DNA of 64,000 bases from NCBI RefSeq assembly GCF_000526495.1, contig NZ_JAGE01000001.1, forward strand, positions 3,472,501 through 3,536,500. Direction: 5' to 3'. A program made the translations under genes and the position numbers. The stretch is from Ruminiclostridium josui JCM 17888 (lineage in GTDB: Bacteria > Bacillota > Clostridia > Acetivibrionales > DSM-1351). The notes under the pieces were generated by a model that ran no database searches, was not told the DNA's origin, and worked only from the letters and a program-made list of their open reading frames with translations. Of this stretch, positions 23,628 through 49,316 are shown in pieces (positions within the stretch are counted from its first letter, which is position 1; the number at the start of each line of letters is the position of its first letter).

Positions 23628-23979
23628 ATGAGTAAGCCAGATGATCGCAGATACTGCCTGAAAAGGCGTAGATGAGGAAAGTCCGGGCTCCATAGGGCAA
23701 TGGTGCCGGGTAACTCCCGGTGAAGGTGACTTTAAGGAAAGTGCAACAGAGATATACCGCCATATTAGGTTTGCCTTATATGGTAAGGGTGGAAAGGCGA
23801 GGTAAGAGCTCACCAGCGACTTGGCGACTTGTCGGCTATGTAAACCCCACCTGGAGCAACACCGTGGAGGGACGCAATGACTGCCCGTCAGTCCCGGGGA
23901 GGTGGCTTGAGCCATGCAGAAATGTATGGCCTAGATAGATGATCATCAAATACAGAACCCGGCTTATAGGCTTACTCAT
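23628..23979 (+). ncRNA. rnpB: RNase P RNA, type A
   Basis: The catalytic RNA that trims the 5' ends of tRNA precursors. The conserved cores GAGGAAAGTCCGGGCTCCATAGGGCA (positions about 23671-23700) and GGTAAGAGCTCACCAGCGA are present, with TAAACCCCACCTGGAGCAA, GCCTAGATAGATGATCATC and the final ACAGAACCCGGCTTATAG. The termini ATGAGTAAGCC and GGCTTACTCAT pair. The overall layout matches the ancestral type A fold rather than the Bacillus type B. Confidence 0.97.
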
Positions 23980-23986
23980 TAAATTT

Positions 23987-37090: not shown

Positions 37091-37119
37091 TTGACAAAAA
37101 TCCTAAAATGTGGTAAAAT
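37091..37119 (+). promoter_or_regulatory. Strong promoter of an orphan RNA
   Basis: TTGACA, a 17-nt spacer and TAAAAT. No gene of normal size follows before a terminator at 37223-37252. Confidence 0.85.
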
Positions 37120-37305: not shown

Positions 37306-37334
37306 TTGACAAATTATTACAGCGGTGATAGAAT
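37306..37334 (+). promoter_or_regulatory. Promoter of the first AbrB-zinc gene
   Basis: TTGACA, 17-nt spacer, TAGAAT, ending 36 nt before the gene's ATG. Confidence 0.8.
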
Positions 37335-37370
37335 ACAACCAGCTGAAAACATATAGAAGTGAGGGATTAC

Positions 37371-37610
37371 ATGAAGGCAGTTGGAGTTGTACGTAAATTG
37401 GATAGTCTTGGCCGTTATGTGTTGCCAAAAGAGTTAAGGAGCAGACTTAACATAGACATAGGGGATTCATTGGAAGTATTTGTAGATGGTAATTCCATCT
37501 TATTAAGAAAGTATGAACCATATTGTATCTTCTGTAATGAGGTTAAAGATGTAAACTACTACAAAGGGAAAAATGTATGTAGCAGGTGCATGGGAGAACT
37601 AAAGGGATAA
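37371..37610 (+). CDS. AbrB/SpoVT-family regulator with C-terminal zinc motif
   Basis: A swapped-hairpin DNA-binding protein of about 79 residues. The N-terminus MKAVGVVRKLDSLGRYVLPKELR is the typical AbrB DNA-binding segment. The C-terminus has CIFC and CSRC, a probable zinc knuckle. ATG 37371 follows GAGGGATTAC. A close paralogue is at 48985-49227; the two flank most of the defence island, so they may control it (inference). Confidence 0.9.
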   Translation: MKAVGVVRKLDSLGRYVLPKELRSRLNIDIGDSLEVFVDGNSILLRKYEPYCIFCNEVKDVNYYKGKNVCSRCMGELKG

Positions 37611-37660: not shown

Positions 37661-38521
37661 ATGAACTCATTGGATAAAAAAGTGTTATACACAACTTCTT
37701 TCGAAGATATTATTGAATCAATATCAAATATATGTGGTTGCAGTGAGAAAGCAATACATAACTTTTTAAAGCAATCAAGACCATATAGAAATACAGCTGA
37801 AAGTGATATTAATATTCATAGATTTTTTAGGTCACTAGGAATAGAGTTTACAGGGAATAACGAGTTATTCGAGGTTATTAAATTTGATTCATGTGTTGTG
37901 TCTCATTTAACTACAAGAATAAATCCACCAAATGAATCAGATATCTATTGTCTTATAGATACTTTGGTGAAACCTACGGACATAAGTAAGTTCTTAGCAA
38001 GCAAGAGCATAACTTTTAAGAAGGAAAAGCAAGGTTTAAATGTTTATTATAATGGTGAGTTAGTAGATTGGAACAACTTTAATTGTTCATCTTCGTACAG
38101 AGCTAGGAAAAGGTTAAGGACTCAAGGAAAATACATAGATAATTGTATAAATGGGTTTTTGTTTAATCATTTATTTTGGGAAGATAGCAATGTTGAGCAT
38201 ATAAAATATTGTCCTGAGATCGTTATTGACATATGTGATGAGCTGAAACGTCGGGATATAATCAGTGAGTGGGAGAAGATATCTACAACTTATGCACTTG
38301 GGTTTATTATGGATGTAGGAGATATTACATTTGATGAATATACACGCTTTAAAACGACTAAATCCAAAATATATTTAATATACAAGTTTATCGTATATTT
38401 TCTTGTACAGATATACCATAATGAGTGGTCAGCAAGGTTGGATAACCCAATAATCAGATTGAAAGACAATAAATCTGTAAGTAAGGAAAATATCTTTGGC
38501 TATTATAAAATAGACAGATAG
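37661..38521 (+). CDS. Unrecognised 286-residue protein at the head of an operon
   Basis: Not recognised. A soluble protein with a mixed pattern; no P-loop or nuclease motif is clear. An early segment (ICGCSEKAIHNFLKQSRPYRN) is helical, and the C-terminal third is hydrophobic-aromatic (IYLIYKFIVYFLVQIYHNEW), which could be a buried helix or a membrane-touching one. The ATG 37661 is close to AAAGGG; TTG 37670 is an alternative. It precedes three tightly packed genes by 21 nt. Confidence 0.6.
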   Translation: MNSLDKKVLYTTSFEDIIESISNICGCSEKAIHNFLKQSRPYRNTAESDINIHRFFRSLGIEFTGNNELFEVIKFDSCVVSHLTTRINPPNESDIYCLIDTLVKPTDISKFLASKSITFKKEKQGLNVYYNGELVDWNNFNCSSSYRARKRLRTQGKYIDNCINGFLFNHLFWEDSNVEHIKYCPEIVIDICDELKRRDIISEWEKISTTYALGFIMDVGDITFDEYTRFKTTKSKIYLIYKFIVYFLVQIYHNEWSARLDNPIIRLKDNKSVSKENIFGYYKIDR

Positions 38522-38542
38522 TATACTTTTAGGGAGTAAAAG

Positions 38543-39088
38543 ATGGCAAATACTAATCAACTGAAATATATTATTGAACCGGAAATGAAACGGATTTTTT
38601 GTGATACATATTGTGCTGAGACTTTGTCATTATCAAATAAGCAGCTTCAATGCATATTTAACGATATGGAGCCGGACCTGGTAGCTGTTAGTTATGAGAA
38701 AGGTATACTGCATATTGGTGAAATAACTAGATCGGGGTTTATGGGTCAGAAAGGTAAAGACTTCCATGTTGGGGCAGTAAAGAAAATATTTGAAGCTTTC
38801 TCCAAGTTTTATTTACTCCGACTTGATAAAGAAGGGGTACTTCAAAGACTAAGAAAATATTACGATATTAGCATTATAAGTGATATCCAGTGTCATTTTA
38901 TAGTCCCAGAAGGATCAAGGTTTATAAAGGCTTTAGGTTATAGGGCTAAGCTATTTGATACTGGGGTTATGAGTTTAGATACCATAAAGCTAGATAAAGA
39001 ATACGAGCTGTTAATGATACAGATTTTAATGAATGCAAAGGATGAAATGGGAAAACAGGGGGGCGTGAGTTTTATTGAGTATAGATGA
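38543..39088 (+). CDS. Unrecognised protein, weak nuclease-like pattern
   Basis: A 181-residue protein. MEPDLVAVSYEKGILHIGEITRSG (about residues 46-69) has the spacing of a PD-(D/E)XK core (Asp, then Glu on a following strand), but the lysine is replaced by Thr, so activity is doubtful. It overlaps the next gene by 14 nt, showing translational coupling. The function is unknown; in an island of defence genes a role against phage is a reasonable guess only. Confidence 0.55.
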   Translation: MANTNQLKYIIEPEMKRIFCDTYCAETLSLSNKQLQCIFNDMEPDLVAVSYEKGILHIGEITRSGFMGQKGKDFHVGAVKKIFEAFSKFYLLRLDKEGVLQRLRKYYDISIISDIQCHFIVPEGSRFIKALGYRAKLFDTGVMSLDTIKLDKEYELLMIQILMNAKDEMGKQGGVSFIEYR

Positions 39089-39863
39089 CCCAATTAAAAG
39101 CGGTAGAGTTAAGAAGGAGAATTTTTTAGGTGCAGTAATTGACCATGAAAGCAAACAGTTCAGGGTTTACACCAATGATATGCTTATAAATAGATACTCG
39201 CGTGACTCGGTGAATGTGGCAAAATCATTTGATAAACTGTGCGGGGCTCAAATGAAGAAAATTAGTGAGTTATACAGTAGATCTATTTATTACATAGGTG
39301 ATGGGTTTGTAAGGGCAGCTAAGAATTCAGATGATGTCGGAGTTGAATGCGGAAAGCTATTGATGAATGCAATGCAAACAATCACTGCAAGCGTAGAACT
39401 ATTGAGAAATGGCTATATTCTCCAGCCAGGTATGTTGCTAAGGTCAATAATTGAGACATTCAGCTTAATATCATATATCTTGCTTGAACCAAATGCTTTC
39501 AATGAGTTTAAGGGCGGAAGAATAGATATAAACAGTACCATTAAATACGGGAAAAAAGTATTACCGCCATTGGGAGAATTTCAAGGGCTATTAAGTAATA
39601 ACTTTGTTCATATTAGCCATCTTCATTCAGAATATAATATTATTACTGTTTATGATGAAATGACAGAGCCACTAGATCTTAACCTTGGCATTATTAAAAA
39701 TGCCGTATGGATGCTTTATGTAATTACTGAGTTGGTTTATTACAACTATTTTGACAAGCACCTATTCTGGGACAAAAAGAACAAATACGAGTATATATTT
39801 AAAGGCAGAGAGGGCGCAGATGCATGGATGAAAGACTTTTTTGATATGGAGGGTTACAAATGA
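39075..39863 (+). CDS. Unrecognised helical protein (DUF5677-like pattern)
   Basis: A 262-residue, largely helical protein. The middle (SVELLRNGYILQPGMLLRSIIETFSLISYILL, about 114-145) resembles the DUF5677-type pattern, in which a helical bundle with R/E/H residues is seen in proteins related to RNA-cutting or toxin-like families. This match is weak. The TTG start lies inside the preceding gene; its end overlaps the next gene by 4 nt. The three genes surely act together. Confidence 0.5.
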   Translation: MSIDDPIKSGRVKKENFLGAVIDHESKQFRVYTNDMLINRYSRDSVNVAKSFDKLCGAQMKKISELYSRSIYYIGDGFVRAAKNSDDVGVECGKLLMNAMQTITASVELLRNGYILQPGMLLRSIIETFSLISYILLEPNAFNEFKGGRIDINSTIKYGKKVLPPLGEFQGLLSNNFVHISHLHSEYNIITVYDEMTEPLDLNLGIIKNAVWMLYVITELVYYNYFDKHLFWDKKNKYEYIFKGREGADAWMKDFFDMEGYK

Positions 39864-40714
39864 ATTTAATACCAAGTCCTGAGGAATTTTATCTTCAAGT
39901 ACCATTGTATAGGACGTATCAAGTAAATGAAGTGGATTTGAATGAAGTATGCAACATAATTTTTTATACCGGAACACTAGATATGTACTGTTCAGGCTGT
40001 AAGAATATAGGAACGTTTAAAAGTCTGGTCAAATCTACAGTAGCATATGCAAATTATATAAATGCTAAAAGTAGTACAGGAAGTTTATCAAGCTTCTCAA
40101 AAGTGGATTCAGAATTTGAAACATTAAACAAAACTAGATACTATAGAGTTAGTTTCTCCTGTACTAGGGAGTGCGGCCAATTGGTTGATTTCTATATACA
40201 AATTTATAATGATAAACTCTCAAAAGTCGGCCAATATCCTTCACTTTATGATTTAAATAAATCAAGTATAAGGCAGTATGAAAAAATATTATCTCCTAAT
40301 TACATTGATGAATTTAATAAGGCAATAAGTCTAGCTTCAAGTGGTATAGGTATTGGATCCTTTGTTTATTTGAGAAGGATATTTGAAAGTCTTATAGAAG
40401 AAGCGCATATTAAAGCAGCTGAAGCAGATAACTGGCAGGAAGATACTTATCAAAAAAGTACGGTAGACCAAAAGATAAATATTATCAAAGAGCATTTACC
40501 GGCATTCCTGGTGGAAAACAGGATAATATACTCGGTTTTAAGTAAAGGTATTCATGAGTTAAGCGAAAAAGAGTGCTTAGATAACTTTGAACCTTTGAAA
40601 CTAGGGATTGAACTCATTCTTGATGAAAGGAAAGAACTCATTGAGAGGAACAGGAAAATTGAAGAAGCTAAAAAGTCAATACAAAAGATACATGAGGGCA
40701 TGAAAGGAAAGTAG
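39860..40714 (+). CDS. Unrecognised protein with HEPN/DUF4145-like C-terminus
   Basis: A 284-residue protein. The N-terminal part has cysteines (YCSGCKNIG, SCTRECG) that could bind zinc. The C-terminal half (SFVYLRRIFESLIEEAH ... SKGIHELSEKECLDNFEPLKLGIELIL) is helical and recalls DUF4145/HEPN-like domains, common in defence and toxin proteins. A coiled, lysine-rich tail ends it. It overlaps the previous gene by ATGA. The HEPN call is a pattern-based inference. Confidence 0.5.
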   Translation: MNLIPSPEEFYLQVPLYRTYQVNEVDLNEVCNIIFYTGTLDMYCSGCKNIGTFKSLVKSTVAYANYINAKSSTGSLSSFSKVDSEFETLNKTRYYRVSFSCTRECGQLVDFYIQIYNDKLSKVGQYPSLYDLNKSSIRQYEKILSPNYIDEFNKAISLASSGIGIGSFVYLRRIFESLIEEAHIKAAEADNWQEDTYQKSTVDQKINIIKEHLPAFLVENRIIYSVLSKGIHELSEKECLDNFEPLKLGIELILDERKELIERNRKIEEAKKSIQKIHEGMKGK

Positions 40715-40744: not shown

Positions 40745-41793
40745 ATGCATGAAGAAACCAATTGGATCAATATTGCTACAATGATATTTGAAGGTACAAA
40801 GTGGGATGCTTCGGATGATGAAATAAAGCTTCTCGCCCAAAGATTGCTTGTTTTAGAAGATAGGGGGCTTTCAAAATTAAATAAACGGCTTATGGAAGGT
40901 GGAAAGAAAATATGGGATACATTTGCTGAGCATAACTTTTGTAATGAGCTTATACAACATAACCTTTCCACTACTCCAATTCTGTATGAACAAATGAGTT
41001 GGAAGGCAAAACTCTCAATAGACCTCCCGACTTCGTAATACAGAAAGAAGGCATTACATTTTGGATACAAATGAAGAATCTGTCAGAAACAGAGCGGGAA
41101 AATAGAAGATCAAAGGATATTATGCAGATAAAGAAACTCGCTCAAGACATTAAAGTAAATAAATTCTTCTGGTGCAGTTTGTCGGAGGACTTTAACTCTT
41201 CTGATGTTAATCCATTGGTTGACTACATATCCACTATCGCAGTAGATAGTATTGATAATGAAAAATATTGGTACCCATCACCGGATCACATCAAAGCTGA
41301 GATTACCTTTTGGAAACCCAATAAAACGGTATTTGAGCATCTAACATTAGGGGGTTCTGGTGATAATGAGTTCATAGATGTTACTGGAGAAAGCAGTACC
41401 CAAATAAGAAATAGCTTAAATAATGCGGCTGGAGCATTTGAGTGGGATACAGATAATAAAAATATAAATCTTATTGCTATGGAAATGGGTAATGCCAGCC
41501 ATCACAATATAGATATTGGTGAAGCTGTGTTTGGAACTGAAGAATTTATTTACGGTATAAACAGAGAACAAAGGTGGCATAGAGCAAATAATGGTTTCTT
41601 TGAGGACATTCAATTTAACAAAAAGGTAGCAGGAGTTATAGTTGTAAAACGTAAAGAGCATTCACCTATATGTGAATATACAAAGCTGTTATTTATTAAT
41701 GACAGATTTAAAGATAGAGCAGAGCAGATAGGTTTAATAATGAATTTTGACAAGGTTATCCATTTTAATGATTTGATACAAGATGATAATTGA
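40745..41793 (+). pseudogene. PD-(D/E)XK nuclease-like gene split by a frameshift
   Basis: The frame from ATG 40745 reads to a TAA at 41036-41038. A second frame (open from before 40999) continues as EGKTLNRPPDFVIQ and ITFWIQMK to 41793. Adding one A to the A-run at 40992-40994 joins them as ILYEQNELEGKTLNRPPDFVI, giving one protein of about 349 residues. The PD...(Q)xK pattern is a restriction-like nuclease core. The shift is a real mutation or an assembly error. Neither half alone holds the whole domain. Confidence 0.75.
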
Positions 41794-41853: not shown

Positions 41854-42858
41854 ATGCCTGATCTATTATTACATAATAAGCAAATAAATAGTGTATTTCA
41901 GTTGTTGGGTGATAAAGAGAACGATATCTGCTACAGCGTTGCATGGGCATTATCTAAGTGCCCTGAGCTCTTAAAGGAATTCATTAACCAAACAATACAA
42001 GTTACCAAATACGATTCTGAGAATGTAGAAATACGTTTGCAGGAATATAACTCTGATGATGGTGGGTTTACTGATATTGAGATTATCTGTGAGCCTTATT
42101 TTTATATAATAATTGAAGCAAAGCGAGGTTGGGTACTTCCGGGTAAAGAGCAGCTTGAAAAGTATGCCAGCAGACAGAACTTTTTTGATAGTTCAGCCAA
42201 AGTAAAGAAACTCATTGCAATGTCAGAGTGTAGTAAATCCTATGCAGAGCATAACCTACAGGTGAAAAATATAAAAGGTATAGATATAATTCCGGTTTCA
42301 TGGAAAGACGTTTATAAGTATTCAGAAGCAGCTTACAGAAGAAGTAACCATGCTGAAAAGCACCTTTTAATAGAACTACAAACATACTTAGGGGGATTGA
42401 TGACCATGCAGAATAAAGATTCAAACCTAGTATTTGTTGTATCCTTGGGCAGTAGTAAAATTGAAGGTTCGGATCTTACTTGGATAGATGTAGTTGAAAA
42501 GAAGGAAAGATACTTTCACCCAATGGGACAAAATGGGTGGCCTAAAACTCCTCCTAATTATATTGCTTTCAGGTATCACGGCAAATTACAGTCAATTCAT
42601 CATATAGAAGGATATAAAGTTTTAACAGATTTGAGTAGTAGAATTCCAGAGATACCATATGCATCATGGATGGAAACACCTCACTTTCTATACAAGTTGG
42701 GAAAGGGCTTTGCACCAAGCAAGGAAGTAAAAACAGGTAACATTTATCGGAATGGCAGAGTTTGGTGTATGCTAGATACATTGTTTACCTGCGATACAAT
42801 ATCGGATGCTCGTGATGAAACAAAAAGAAGGCAGCAGTTAATTGGGAGCAAAATCTGA
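41854..42858 (+). CDS. PD-(D/E)XK nuclease-like protein
   Basis: A 334-residue protein. GGFTDIEIICEPYFYIIIEAKRG (about residues 68-90) shows the Asp, then E-A-K, of a PD-(D/E)XK nuclease. The remainder has WIDVVEKKERYFHPMGQNGWPKTPPNYIAFRY, typical of uncharacterised nuclease-like proteins in defence loci. The 3' end of this gene is partly duplicated at 49269-49316, beyond the restriction-modification cassette. Probably an antiviral or DNA-processing nuclease (inference). Confidence 0.75.
   Translation: MPDLLLHNKQINSVFQLLGDKENDICYSVAWALSKCPELLKEFINQTIQVTKYDSENVEIRLQEYNSDDGGFTDIEIICEPYFYIIIEAKRGWVLPGKEQLEKYASRQNFFDSSAKVKKLIAMSECSKSYAEHNLQVKNIKGIDIIPVSWKDVYKYSEAAYRRSNHAEKHLLIELQTYLGGLMTMQNKDSNLVFVVSLGSSKIEGSDLTWIDVVEKKERYFHPMGQNGWPKTPPNYIAFRYHGKLQSIHHIEGYKVLTDLSSRIPEIPYASWMETPHFLYKLGKGFAPSKEVKTGNIYRNGRVWCMLDTLFTCDTISDARDETKRRQQLIGSKI
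42783..42837 (+). repeat. Left copy of a direct repeat around the R-M cassette
   Basis: The 55 bp at the end of the nuclease-like gene (GTTTACCTGCGATACAATAT...AGGCAGCAGT) recur at 49269-49316 with one 8-nt deletion and no other change. The repeats frame the XRE-mod-IS3-res-AbrB block. Confidence 0.85.
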
Positions 42859-43246: not shown

Positions 43247-44444
43247 ATGGATAATAATTTAAACAGCTTAGAGATGATGAGCAAAGAAGAACTTTTAGAA
43301 TTTGTAAAGAAAATGTTAAACGGTGGTATTACATTATCGTTTAATGGAAAACGCACAGCGCAAGTAATTGAACGTAAGGTAATGCCACGTATTGTTAAGA
43401 TTGATAAAAAGCTTAGCTTCAATGACAATAGTGCTGAAGGAAACAACATTATTATAGATGGTGAAAATCTTCAAGCGATGGTAACACTTTATAAATATAA
43501 AGGACAAATAGATTTAATCGTTACAGATCCGCCCTATAATACCGGAAAAGACTTTAGATATAATGATAAATGGGATACAGATCCGAATGACCCGGATTTA
43601 GGAGAACTTGTAACCCTGGAAGATGGTTCTAGGCATACAAAATGGATGAAATTTATGTTGCCTAGAATTCAAATGATGAAAGCAATGCTAAAACCTAATG
43701 GAGTCTTAGCAATTTGTATTGATGAGCGTGAATTTTTCCATCTTGGCATGTTATTAAATGAAGTTTTTGGAGAAGAAAACAGAATAGGCATAATCAATTG
43801 GCAGAAATCATACTCCCCAAAGAATGATAGCAAACATGTGTCAACGGCGACTGAATATGTGCTAGTTTATGCGAAAGACAAGAACATAGCCAAAACAGCA
43901 TTGCTGCCACGTGATGAAAAGATGAATGAACGTTTCACGAACCCTGATAACGATAATCTAGGAAGATGGGCAGGAAAAGACCCTACAGCAAAACAATTTA
44001 GAAAAAATACAGTTTATGGCATTCAATCTCCTTTTAGTGGATATATACATTATCCTGAAGGAGAATATAGTTTTAATGGAAATGTTCCTGAAGCAACCAA
44101 ACATTGGACTGGTATGAGCAAAACAGAAATGCAATTGGCTTTAGAAGGTTGGGGCTCACCATATGTTCTAAAAAATATAGGTGATGGGCGCGGACAGGCG
44201 TTGGTGCTAAAGGGCTCATCAGTAAGATTACATGACTATGACCCATCTAAAGACCCTGTTGTAGCGGAAGCTAATAAGAAGGCTTTATACATTAAGGAAA
44301 ACTCGTCTTGGCCAAAGCTAATTTTTCTCGATGATAATTCTCGTGGGGTTGGTTTTGGTAGGCCTCGAATCAAAAATCATTTAAAGTTTGTAAAACAAGG
44401 CAAAGTAGCAATGACTTACTGGGCTGATGAGGATTATGATGAAC
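43247..44444 (+). pseudogene. mod: Type III restriction-modification methylase, 5' part
   Basis: N-terminal part of the modification subunit, an N6-adenine methylase of beta order. TDPPYNTG (motif IV) is near residue 93, and the target-recognition region follows. It is interrupted after codon position DYDE by an IS3-family element. Joining base 44444 to base 45720 (one copy of the AAC target duplication) restores DEPFVLESQSWDHEESGH and an uninterrupted 667-residue frame. The frame read into the IS (to 44593) is not natural. Confidence 0.92.
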
Positions 44445-44508
44445 TGACCTTAATCCAGTTTGATGGACACAAGGAATCCCTATATAATAAAAACATGGAG
44501 GGATTCAA

Positions 44509-44802
44509 ATGGCTGAGAGAAAAAAGTTTGATAAAGCATTCAAGGAACAGACCGTTGAAAAAATATTGGCAGGTGAAACAACAGCAAGCTTAATGGCAAA
44601 AGAAATTGGAGTGCACTACTCAACAGTAAGAGACTGGTTAATCGCTTATGAAAAGGATGGTTCAAGTGCCTTTCCAGGCAGTGGTAACCTTAAGCCTGAC
44701 GATGATGAAATAAGAAAATTACGCAGGGAATTAGCTAACCTTAAAGAGGAAAATGAAATATTAAAAAAAGCCGCGGCCTATTTTGCGAAAAATCAGAAAT
44801 AA
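44509..44802 (+). CDS. IS3-family OrfA (helix-turn-helix part)
   Basis: A 97-residue DNA-binding half of the transposase. The helix-turn-helix (SLMAKEIGVHYSTVRDWL, about 25-42) is followed by a leucine-zipper-like coiled coil (LRRELANLKEENEILKKA). The seven A at 44763-44769, in frame A AAA AAA, allow a -1 shift into the orfB frame, making the OrfAB transposase. Confidence 0.92.
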   Translation: MAERKKFDKAFKEQTVEKILAGETTASLMAKEIGVHYSTVRDWLIAYEKDGSSAFPGSGNLKPDDDEIRKLRRELANLKEENEILKKAAAYFAKNQK

Positions 44803-44852
44803 ACAAGTTTAATTTTATCTATAAACACCGCTTCATATTTCGGATTGCAAAG

Positions 44853-45653
44853 ATGTGTCAGGCCCTTCAAGTATCAAGAAGCGGTTATTATGCATATTTT
44901 TCACGTAGCGAAAGTAATCGGAGCAAGTCAAATAGAGAGCTCCTTGAAACTATTAAAGAAATCCATAAAAAGAGTCATGGAATTTATGGTGCTCCTCAGA
45001 TAACAAAGAATCTTCCGGAAAATCAGAAAGCCAGTAAAGGCCGTGTTGCAAGGTTAATGAAGGCAAATGGTATACGTTCCAAAGTGTCAAAGAAATATAA
45101 AGCGACTACGTACTCAAATCATAGTCTTCCTGTGGCAGATAACATTCTTAATAGAGAATTTACTGCCAGTAGACCTAACCAGAAGTGGGTATCAGATATT
45201 ACGTATATTCCTACAAAAGAAGGTTGGCTTTATCTTGCTGGTGTAATGGACCTCTATGGACGTAGGCTTGTAGGATGGGCTATGGCGAACCATATGAGAA
45301 CGGAGTTGGTATCTGCTGCTCTGAATCAAGCAATTGGAAGAACCGGTGCTAAAGAAGGATTAATAATTCATTCTGACCGGGGAATTCAATACGCCAGTAA
45401 TGACTATCAAAATCTGCTAAAAAGATATGGATTTGTATGCAGTATGAGCAGAAAGGGCAATTGTTATGATAATGCCCCTATGGAATCTTTTTGGGGCAAA
45501 CTTAAAATGGAATGGCTAAATGATTATAATTTTGAGACCAGAGCTGAGGCTAAAAAGGCTGTTTTTGAATACATAGAACTGTTTTATAACCGTAAAAGGA
45601 CTCATTCAGCAAATGGATATATTCCCCCATTCGTGCTGAAGGAAATATCATAG
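44853..45653 (+). CDS. IS3-family OrfB (DDE integrase part)
   Basis: The 266-residue catalytic half. WVSDITYIP gives the first Asp (about residue 112), IIHSDRGIQYAS the second and NAPMESFWGKLKMEW the Glu of an rve-type DDE domain; FYNRKRTHSANGYIPP is the family's typical end. Its frame is open upstream to the A-run in orfA, so the active protein is probably the -1 frameshift fusion. Confidence 0.94.
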   Translation: MCQALQVSRSGYYAYFSRSESNRSKSNRELLETIKEIHKKSHGIYGAPQITKNLPENQKASKGRVARLMKANGIRSKVSKKYKATTYSNHSLPVADNILNREFTASRPNQKWVSDITYIPTKEGWLYLAGVMDLYGRRLVGWAMANHMRTELVSAALNQAIGRTGAKEGLIIHSDRGIQYASNDYQNLLKRYGFVCSMSRKGNCYDNAPMESFWGKLKMEWLNDYNFETRAEAKKAVFEYIELFYNRKRTHSANGYIPPFVLKEIS

Positions 45654-45719
45654 ATATTGTAAGAATTAATGAGATAAATAGTGATTCTTGCTGTCTATTT
45701 TATTGAGGCAAGGTCAAAC

Positions 45720-46525
45720 CATTTGTCCTTGAGTCACAATCATGGGATCACGAAGAGTCAGGACATAGCCAGACAGGACTTACCGAATTAGACTCAATAT
45801 TAGGGAAAGGACATAATTTTGAAACTGTTAAGCCTCTAAAATTGATTAAAAAAATTATACAACTATGGTGTCCTCCAAGCGGTATTGTACTAGACCCATT
45901 TGCTGGATCAGGAACAACTGGGCATGCTGTACTTGAATTGAACGACGAACTGGGAGCCGAAAGAACCTTTATTCTCATTGAAAAAGGCGAAGAAGAAGAT
46001 AAATATGCTCGGACTTTGACAAGAGAACGTGTTAAAAGGGCCATCACAGGTGAAAGAGTCAATAAAGATGGAGCAGTCGAGAAACTAGAAGATGGGCTAC
46101 CTGGCGGTTTTGCATATTGGGTCTTGGATAAAAAAGTTGACGCTAAAGCTATTCTTGAAATGAAACGCGAGGAACTTATAGATGTCATTACAACATCGCA
46201 CTGGGAAGATGATAAGAGGAAGGCTACTAGTGTTATTGAAAGGATAAACAAAGATTACAAGTATTTAGTTGGTAAAAACATTCTGAATGAAGGCTTCTTC
46301 ATTATTTGGAACGGTAAAGATTCAGTTGGTGAATTAAACCAAGGTACCTATATGGACCTATTAGCGGAGGCAAAGAAAGAGGGTGTCAATACACCATTCC
46401 ATGTGTATGCTAGATACCAAGTTTACCAGACACCTAAAGTAAGATTTTATCAAATACCTGATAAAGTACTTATGCATCTTGGCCTCAATGAAAATAGTGA
46501 TAGATATAATAATGAGGAGGACTAA
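45720..46525 (+). pseudogene. mod: Type III restriction-modification methylase, 3' part
   Basis: Continuation of mod after the IS. The frame reads FVLESQSWDHEESGHSQTG... and holds the SAM-binding motif I LDPFAGSGTTGHAVLEL (about 45890-45940), needed for activity. An internal ATG at 45842 could start a fragment, but without motif IV it would be inactive. Two nt separate its stop from res. Confidence 0.9.
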
Positions 46526-49227: not shown

Positions 49228-49268
49228 TTGATTTACACTAAGAGAGAAAGTAAAAACAGGGACACATA

Positions 49269-49316
49269 GTTTACCTGCGATACAATATCGGAATGAAACA
49301 AAAAGAAGGCAGCAGT
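49269..49316 (+). repeat. Right copy of the direct repeat around the R-M cassette
   Basis: Matches 42783-42837 apart from an 8-nt deletion. It lies outside any gene here, so it is a fragment of the nuclease-like gene's 3' end left beyond the cassette. Confidence 0.85.

What the first reader, a model, noticed from the sequence alone, without database searches (positions are those of the whole stretch)
37661..40714. Unrecognised overlapping gene operon inside a defence island
Four genes, with the last three overlapping by 14 and 4 nt, sit between an AbrB regulator and nuclease-like genes. One has a broken PD-(D/E)XK-like pattern, one a helical DUF5677-like body, one a cysteine-containing N-terminus with a HEPN/DUF4145-like end. 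Overlaps imply fixed stoichiometry. This is my best candidate for an undescribed defence system.
Basis: inference. Interest (0 to 1): 0.75.

Follow-up and report, generated by a model that had tools for sequence, protein, structure and literature searches.

The report
Modular defence genes, not one system
Four overlapping bacterial genes that looked like one new virus-defence system seem to be separately travelling genes, but the last one belongs to an unnamed family that repeatedly sits inside known virus-defence operons and in phage genomes, so it is probably a stand-alone helper in virus defence.

Summary
The genes and overlaps are real: A 37661-38521, B 38543-39088, C 39075-39863, D 39860-40714 (B/C 14 nt, C/D 4 nt). 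They are not a conserved four-gene system in what was searched. D relatives were found at 34 places (28 viral contigs, 1 plasmid, 5 genomes), A at 4, B at 2, C at 1; no place held two of the four, within flanks that were sometimes short.

The valuable part is D: zinc-ribbon-like N-terminus plus helical bundle (AlphaFold2 pLDDT 88), PHROG 25239 (unknown function) in 30 of 30 members scanned. It sits directly upstream of pglZ in three BREX-I loci (after pglX in the two uncut ones), between hsdM and hsdS of a type I R-M operon, near a type II R-M pair, and as a lone gene in many phage contigs. It is probably an accessory or guard effector of modification-based defences, working like BxaP or PrrC. 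It is HEPN-like at most: 0 of 30 carry the catalytic R of R-x4-6-H.

A has two tandem relatives behind an ABC-3C system in the same genus. C is DUF5677-like. B keeps PD...GEIT in all copies, but its fold could not be modelled.

The parts
37091..37119 (+). promoter-like site upstream of AbrB (TTGACA-17-TAAAAT, TG before the second hexamer); a second lies at 37306-37334
   Evidence: 11 of 12 matches each; the total number of sites in the region is not above shuffles (32 found, mean 35.5)
37359..37610 (+). AbrB/MazE-type regulator, likely first gene of the transcription unit
   Evidence: PF04014 E 9.7e-12; TIGR01439; 50 nt before A
37661..38521 (+). gene A, 286 aa, no known family; H82, L98, L102, F119, D160, N164, G165, P185, E186, Y211 invariant in 6 family rows
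   Evidence: relatives L010, L049, L076, L077
38543..39088 (+). gene B, 181 aa, PD...GEITxSG signature, possible variant PD-(D/E)XK fold (not shown)
   Evidence: structure prediction failed, pLDDT 38
39075..39863 (+). gene C, 262 aa, DUF5677-like, TTG start, overlaps B by 14 nt
   Evidence: PF18928 20.7 bits (cut-off 27.1); relative L016 28.5 bits
39860..40714 (+). gene D, 284 aa, PHROG 25239; zinc-ribbon-like part (about 39-126) and helical bundle (146-282); overlaps C by 4 nt
   Evidence: contexts
40745..41793 (+). gene E, two ORFs in different frames (40745-41038 and 40999-41793); PPDF...QMK reads like a nuclease motif (recalled pattern)
   Evidence: no convincing family; pieces searched apart; the larger piece has no plasmid match
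41854..42858 (+). gene F, 334 aa, PDDEXK_4-like; stands in other company on the three plasmids read
   Evidence: PF14281 E 0.0047, 17.3 bits (cut-off 22.3)

Best explanation
The stretch is a run of separately acquired defence-island genes behind one AbrB-controlled start, lying upstream of a type III restriction-modification locus; it is not one conserved system. Its best-defined member, D, is a single-gene accessory found in phage contigs, BREX-I, type I R-M and near type II R-M. Most likely mechanism (inferred): D is a latent effector that rides beside modification-based systems. Its zinc ribbon senses a phage product or the state of the partner complex, and its HEPN-like bundle, with the conserved R172, R173, E176, Y224, S228, H232, E236, then stops growth or acts on RNA when the first-line system is overcome, as PrrC does for type I R-M and BxaP probably does beside BREX-III. 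Shown here: the family, a confident fold model, conserved residues and contexts. Inferred: movement, sensing, trigger and chemistry.
For: D relatives lie between pglX and pglZ in L013 and L043, with BrxC and BrxL around them; a D cut by the contig start lies directly before pglZ in L079; D lies between hsdM and hsdS, followed by hsdR, in L078. D precedes a type II methylase plus nuclease in L015, and a candidate PDC-S35 gene (also TIR-like) plus a methylase in L046. Of the 5 genomes other than the window's own with a D, 4 have it inside or near an R-M or BREX locus; the fifth (G259) is cut by a contig end. Among 62 nearest neighbours of the 34 D places, 3 are PglZ and 2 PglX (25 of 163 matching families were shown). 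In 13 of 28 viral contigs D is on the strand opposite to both neighbours, as lysogeny cargo often is (last clause recalled). No joint occurrence of A, B, C, D. Gene F also stands without A-E on the 3 plasmids read, of 7 with a match.
Against: In most of the 34 places (phage contigs) I recognised no defence system beside D, and phage-borne methylases are common, so part of the association could be incidental; no far-neighbour or random-gene control was run. In the window D is separated from mod by E, F and a regulator. The type I R-M relative (L078) is the most remote one (E 3.3e-11), was not in the 30-row alignment, and departs from it: R173 is K, G230-I231 is V-V, C239 is A, while R172, E176, S228 and H232 are kept. 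L023, the viral row nearest to the window copy in the tree, lacks the CxxC. HEPN membership fails on the catalytic R and is weak by fold. A, B and C have so few known relatives, sought partly with single sequences or two-row profiles, that a rare four-gene unit in unsampled genomes cannot be excluded.
Confidence: 0.6

Rival explanations
1. A, B, C and D together form a rare, undescribed multi-gene anti-phage system, translated in coupled fashion.
For: Tight spacing and overlaps; all four lie in a defence island; the locus is absent from the 10 other genomes of the family searched by DNA, as mobile systems often are.
Against: No fetched place holds two of the four: 34 D places, 4 A, 2 B, 1 C. 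Overlaps are common in the window.
Confidence: 0.15
2. The four genes are neutral cargo of a mobile element (regulators, remnants) without a defence role.
For: E is frame-broken and mod is split, so the island looks decaying; one of the two B relatives is broken; I recognised no defence system beside the A relative in L010, and the C relative in L016 lies beside a Fic gene, with a TIR gene about 5 kb away.
Against: D, and A in L077, recur at defence loci; the 30 aligned D proteins keep 13 or more residues unchanged, and one of the 34 D places (L048) looks frame-split while L014, L037 and L079 are cut by contig ends.
Confidence: 0.15
3. D is a regulator or assembly factor of BREX/R-M (for example holding PglZ, PglX or HsdM) and not an effector.
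For: Placement directly before pglZ in 3 loci and between hsdM and hsdS in 1; no catalytic HEPN arginine.
Against: Most relatives are in phage contigs where no such partner was recognised.
Confidence: 0.25

Closest known systems
[quoted passage not shown] section 10 and passages read)
   Same: Single gene inserted in a BREX operon (between pglXI and brxHII in type 3), relatives in phages inside type I R-M, DUF4145/HEPN part, likely abortive protection
   Different: BxaP has DUF4145 at the N-terminus and a weak HEAT-like C-terminal hit; D has a zinc-ribbon-like N-terminus and its helical bundle at the C-terminus, sits in type I BREX, and matches no DUF4145 model. BxaP's sequence was not at hand
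Tha (S. aureus prophage HEPN RNase, PMC11087260; abstract, outline and passages read)
   Same: About 300 aa, carried by prophages, unknown N-terminal part plus C-terminal helical effector domain
   Different: No sequence similarity to D (best E 1.0); Tha has the R-x4-H motif, D does not
Stand-alone HEPN backup effectors of BREX/BR systems (PMC12839542; passages read)
   Same: Small helical gene in or beside the BREX operon, proposed suicide backup
   Different: The passages read name no zinc-ribbon protein without the catalytic R; whether D proteins are among the HEPN genes of their supplementary tables could not be checked
HEPN-T PaREP1/8 (2q00), listed as lacking R with H conserved in PMC3710099 (passages and section 13 read)
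   Same: H kept and R missing; Foldseek TM (target) 0.53 over 122 columns
   Different: Not significant (E 0.96, rank 50); no zinc ribbon named in the passage
PrrC and PARIS (named in a passage of PMC10799925; details recalled)
   Same: Latent toxin beside R-M or BREX, released when phage inhibits the first-line system
   Different: Both carry ATPase parts (recalled); none was recognised in D
PHROG 25239
   Same: All 30 D proteins scanned match
   Different: Function unknown; no paper found with that name

Membership tests
HEPN superfamily (gene D) | R-x4-6-H catalytic motif | tested here: not met
   0 of 30 aligned proteins have R at -1 to -7 of the invariant H232; the remote L078 relative has none there either (sequence)
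HEPN superfamily (gene D) | HEPN helical bundle fold | tested here: inconclusive
   helical bundle 146-282; no significant PDB match, HEPN protein 2q00 at E 0.96, TM (target) 0.53
DUF4145 (gene D) | match to PF13643 above cut-off | tested here: not met
   0 of 30 members at E 0.1; hhalign against 11 DUF4145 domains gives probability 0.4%
PHROG 25239 (gene D) | profile match | tested here: met
   30 of 30 members; window protein E 3.5e-10
BxaP-like BREX/RM accessory (gene D) | single gene inserted within BREX or R-M operons | tested here: met
   4 of 34 places: L013, L043, L079 (cut), L078; not so in the window itself
BxaP-like BREX/RM accessory (gene D) | sequence relation to BxaP and phage protection | not testable with these tools
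   no BxaP sequence at hand; needs a plating experiment
DUF5677 (gene C) | match to PF18928 above cut-off | tested here: inconclusive
   window C 20.7 bits, below 27.1; its 28%-identical relative in L016 28.5 bits, above
PD-(D/E)XK nuclease (gene B) | PD ... (D/E)-x-K in the conserved fold core | tested here: inconclusive
   PD...E-I-T in all 3 sequences, K not in the usual place; AlphaFold2 pLDDT 38
Conserved multi-gene defence system A-B-C-D | co-occurrence of the genes in other genomes | tested here: not met
   no place among 34 D, 4 A, 2 B, 1 C holds two of them

The most novel reading that the evidence does not exclude
D is a member of an undescribed family of guards of modification-based defence: one small zinc-ribbon protein with a non-canonical HEPN-like active site (R-R-x-x-E plus S-x-G-I-H-x-L-x-E) that plugs interchangeably into BREX-I, type I, II and III R-M and prophages, and fires when a phage disables the methyltransferase or PglZ complex.
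Probability: 0.25. Interest if true: 0.7.

Novelty: new variant of a known kind. Interest (0 to 1): 0.45.

Why it matters
A family with no function (PHROG 25239) gets a testable role: an accessory shared by BREX, R-M and phages. If it guards the methylase complexes, it would link systems that are usually studied apart and show a HEPN-like fold working without its usual arginine. It also warns that overlapping genes in a defence island need not be one system.

Tried and rejected
One four-gene system: rejected for lack of any joint occurrence. D as a DUF4145 member: rejected. D related to Tha: rejected. C and D as sister HEPN proteins: hhalign aligns LLRSIIE with YLRRIFE, but probability is 1.4%, so it stays an idea. 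A matching LOG-family proteins in G442 and G371 (E 1.9e-4 and 7.5e-4; the LOG label is my reading of the ORFs): judged chance, because the match covers only the C-terminal third; a 36-residue hit in G444 was not followed. Fold of B: AlphaFold2 failed. Viral scans for B and C, genome scans with D and B as single proteins, phage-record searches for D, B and C and plasmid searches for A and B found nothing. Foldseek against viral models: nothing significant. No near/far control for the neighbour scan was possible with the remaining family searches (one search used the last).

Full report
What is there. On the + strand: an AbrB-type regulator (37359-37610), then A (286 aa), B (181 aa), C (262 aa), D (284 aa), then E (two ORFs in different frames), F (PDDEXK_4-like), a small HTH gene, a type III mod gene (43247 onwards, remainder at 45842-46525) split by what I read as an IS3-type element, res and an AIPR gene (the IS label and the mod remainder are my reading of the ORFs, not a family search). 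B and C overlap by 14 nt and C and D by 4 nt, as reported. Two good promoter-like sites lie before AbrB and the next + strand site of equal score before F, which fits one unit AbrB-A-B-C-D(-E), although such sites are no more frequent here than in shuffles. Overlaps are not special: 9 of 47 same-strand neighbour pairs in the window overlap by a crude call, which also counts the frame-broken E.

Is it one system? Relatives were sought one gene at a time. D: 3 of 298 other genomes of the phylum sample and, with a 30-row profile, 3 of 330 other genomes of the class sample; together five different genomes. To these add 1 of 72,556 plasmid records, none in 50,697 phage records and 28 viral contigs: 34 places. 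A: one convincing relative of three hits in 195 other class genomes, three convincing of four hits in 320 with a profile (the samples overlap, G395 is in both), one viral contig, no plasmid: 4 places, one with two copies. B: 1 of 147 and 1 broken copy in 228, no plasmid. C: none in 147 nor 228, one plasmid. Scanning these places with A, B, C and D as single-sequence queries found no place with two of them. The flanks were about 6-8 kb at best, less where contigs end (L079 holds only 3 kb, L014 is one-sided). The locus is also absent, as DNA, from the 10 other genomes of the family. So the four genes are better seen as separate modules that met here. F fits the same pattern on the three of its seven matching plasmid records that were read.

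What D is. All 30 D proteins scanned match PHROG 25239, of unknown function; 2 also match phrog_1305 ('DNA binding protein', best E 1.1e-4) and 1 phrog_23116. None matches a Pfam family below E 0.01, and PADLOC gives one weak DndD hit. AlphaFold2 on 28 sequences gives pLDDT 88: a beta-rich N-terminal part and a helical bundle at 146-282. C44 and C47 are kept in 29 of 30 and C101 in 30 of 30; the fourth likely ligand is His107 in 28 of 30, and in the window protein a Cys four residues after C101 is the likely substitute. The exception without CxxC is L023, which the tree places next to the window copy. Y170, R172, R173, E176, P214, Y224, S228, G230, I231, H232, L234, E236 and C239 are unchanged in 30 of 30. 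The remote relative in L078 was found later and is not among the 30; it keeps R172, E176, S228 and H232 but has K for R173, V-V for G230-I231 and A for C239. The best-looking HEPN comparison, 2q00, is not significant. The HEPN R-x4-6-H arginine is absent in 30 of 30. PMC3710099 lists HEPN families lacking R with H kept, among them PaREP1/8 (2q00) and c2405, so absence of R does not rule out the fold, but membership is not shown.

Where D sits. In L013 (G069) and L043 (viral contig) D lies between pglX and pglZ, with brxC before and brxL after. In L079 (G523) a D cut by the contig start is followed directly by pglZ, 48% and 66% identical to the other two. In L078 (G546) D lies between hsdM and hsdS, followed by hsdR. 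In L015 (G056) it lies about 360 nt upstream of a type II methylase and nuclease pair; in L046 (viral contig) it precedes PDC-S35, which also matches TIR models, and a methylase. On the Pelagovum plasmid it follows the replication gene, and the next gene on the other side is annotated super-infection exclusion protein B. In 13 of 28 viral contigs it is on the strand opposite to both immediate neighbours, the usual look of lysogeny cargo (recalled). In a 30-row tree the two BREX copies included there group with three viral-contig copies (100/99), and the window copy falls weakly with L021 and L023 (81/83), so the gene seems to move between these settings. An unselected scan of the 62 nearest neighbours of the 34 places found PglZ 3 times and PglX twice (only 25 of 163 matching families are shown). 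No distant-neighbour control was run; the neighbours were picked by eye.

How it may work. BxaP, with a DUF4145 part, inserted in type 3 BREX and with relatives inside phage type I R-M, protects alone and probably by an abortive route (PMC10799925). HEPN genes inside Pgl/BREX operons were proposed as suicide backups (PMC3710099 section 13; PMC12839542 passages). Tha shows a prophage HEPN gene guarding lysogens (PMC11087260) but is not related to D by sequence. D repeats the placement of the first two and the size of the last. I therefore propose a latent effector next to modification-based defence, with the zinc ribbon as sensor; sensing and chemistry are inference.

The other genes. A: six family rows keep H82, D160, N164-G165, P185-E186 and Y211, among others. 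In G489, of the same genus, two overlapping A relatives follow an ABC-3C set (SMEK-CTD10, MC6, DUF2326 ATPase), so A too can be a defence-locus gene; its other three places gave no such neighbour that I recognised. B: PD...GEITxSG is kept in all three known copies, one broken and lying behind a methylase, NurA-like, HerA-like, methylase cluster (these labels are my reading of the sequences, not a family search). C: DUF5677 by way of its plasmid relative.

Novelty. Searches for the PHROG name, for DUF5677 (one unrelated paper, listing only), for DUF4145 with HEPN and defence, for BREX with pglX, pglZ and HEPN, for BREX with zinc ribbon, accessory, prophage and pglZ and for HEPN with prophage, zinc ribbon, anti-phage and R-M showed no description of D as such in the titles, abstracts and passages I saw. 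Supplementary tables could not be read and the library lacks most subscription journals, so D may be listed elsewhere.

Noticed in passing
window 43247-46525: The type III mod gene is split by what reads as an IS3-type element (ORFs 44509-44802 and 44853-45653), so the neighbouring R-M locus is interrupted as it stands.
   Followed up: partly
window 40745-41793: Gene E consists of two ORFs in different frames overlapping by 40 nt: frame-broken or frameshifted.
   Followed up: no
window 42775-42838 and 49261-49316: A stretch of about 60 bp near the 3' end of gene F recurs (84%) upstream of the AIPR gene.
   Followed up: no
window 23629-23982: The mobile-looking region starts after the RNase P RNA gene, a possible insertion point.
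   Followed up: no
L077 7973-9734: Two overlapping A-family genes directly after an ABC-3C system in a genome of the same genus.
   Followed up: partly
L013 2982-7333: pglX is in two pieces (814 and 357 aa) with a 270-aa, probably membrane, protein gene between them.
   Followed up: no
L010 7845-8909: A 354-aa gene with weak RecT-like similarity (E 0.0043, below cut-off) directly precedes the A relative.
   Followed up: no
L055 1740-9392: A broken B relative sits at the end of a methylase, NurA-like, HerA-like, methylase cluster (labels by reading).
   Followed up: partly
L080 (own genome, C1:1034064-1034540): The genome has another, stronger DUF5677 protein (E 2.6e-23) far from the window.
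   Followed up: no
L046 5950-8809: In a viral contig the D relative is followed by a PDC-S35 candidate defence gene (also TIR-like) and a DNA methylase.
   Followed up: partly
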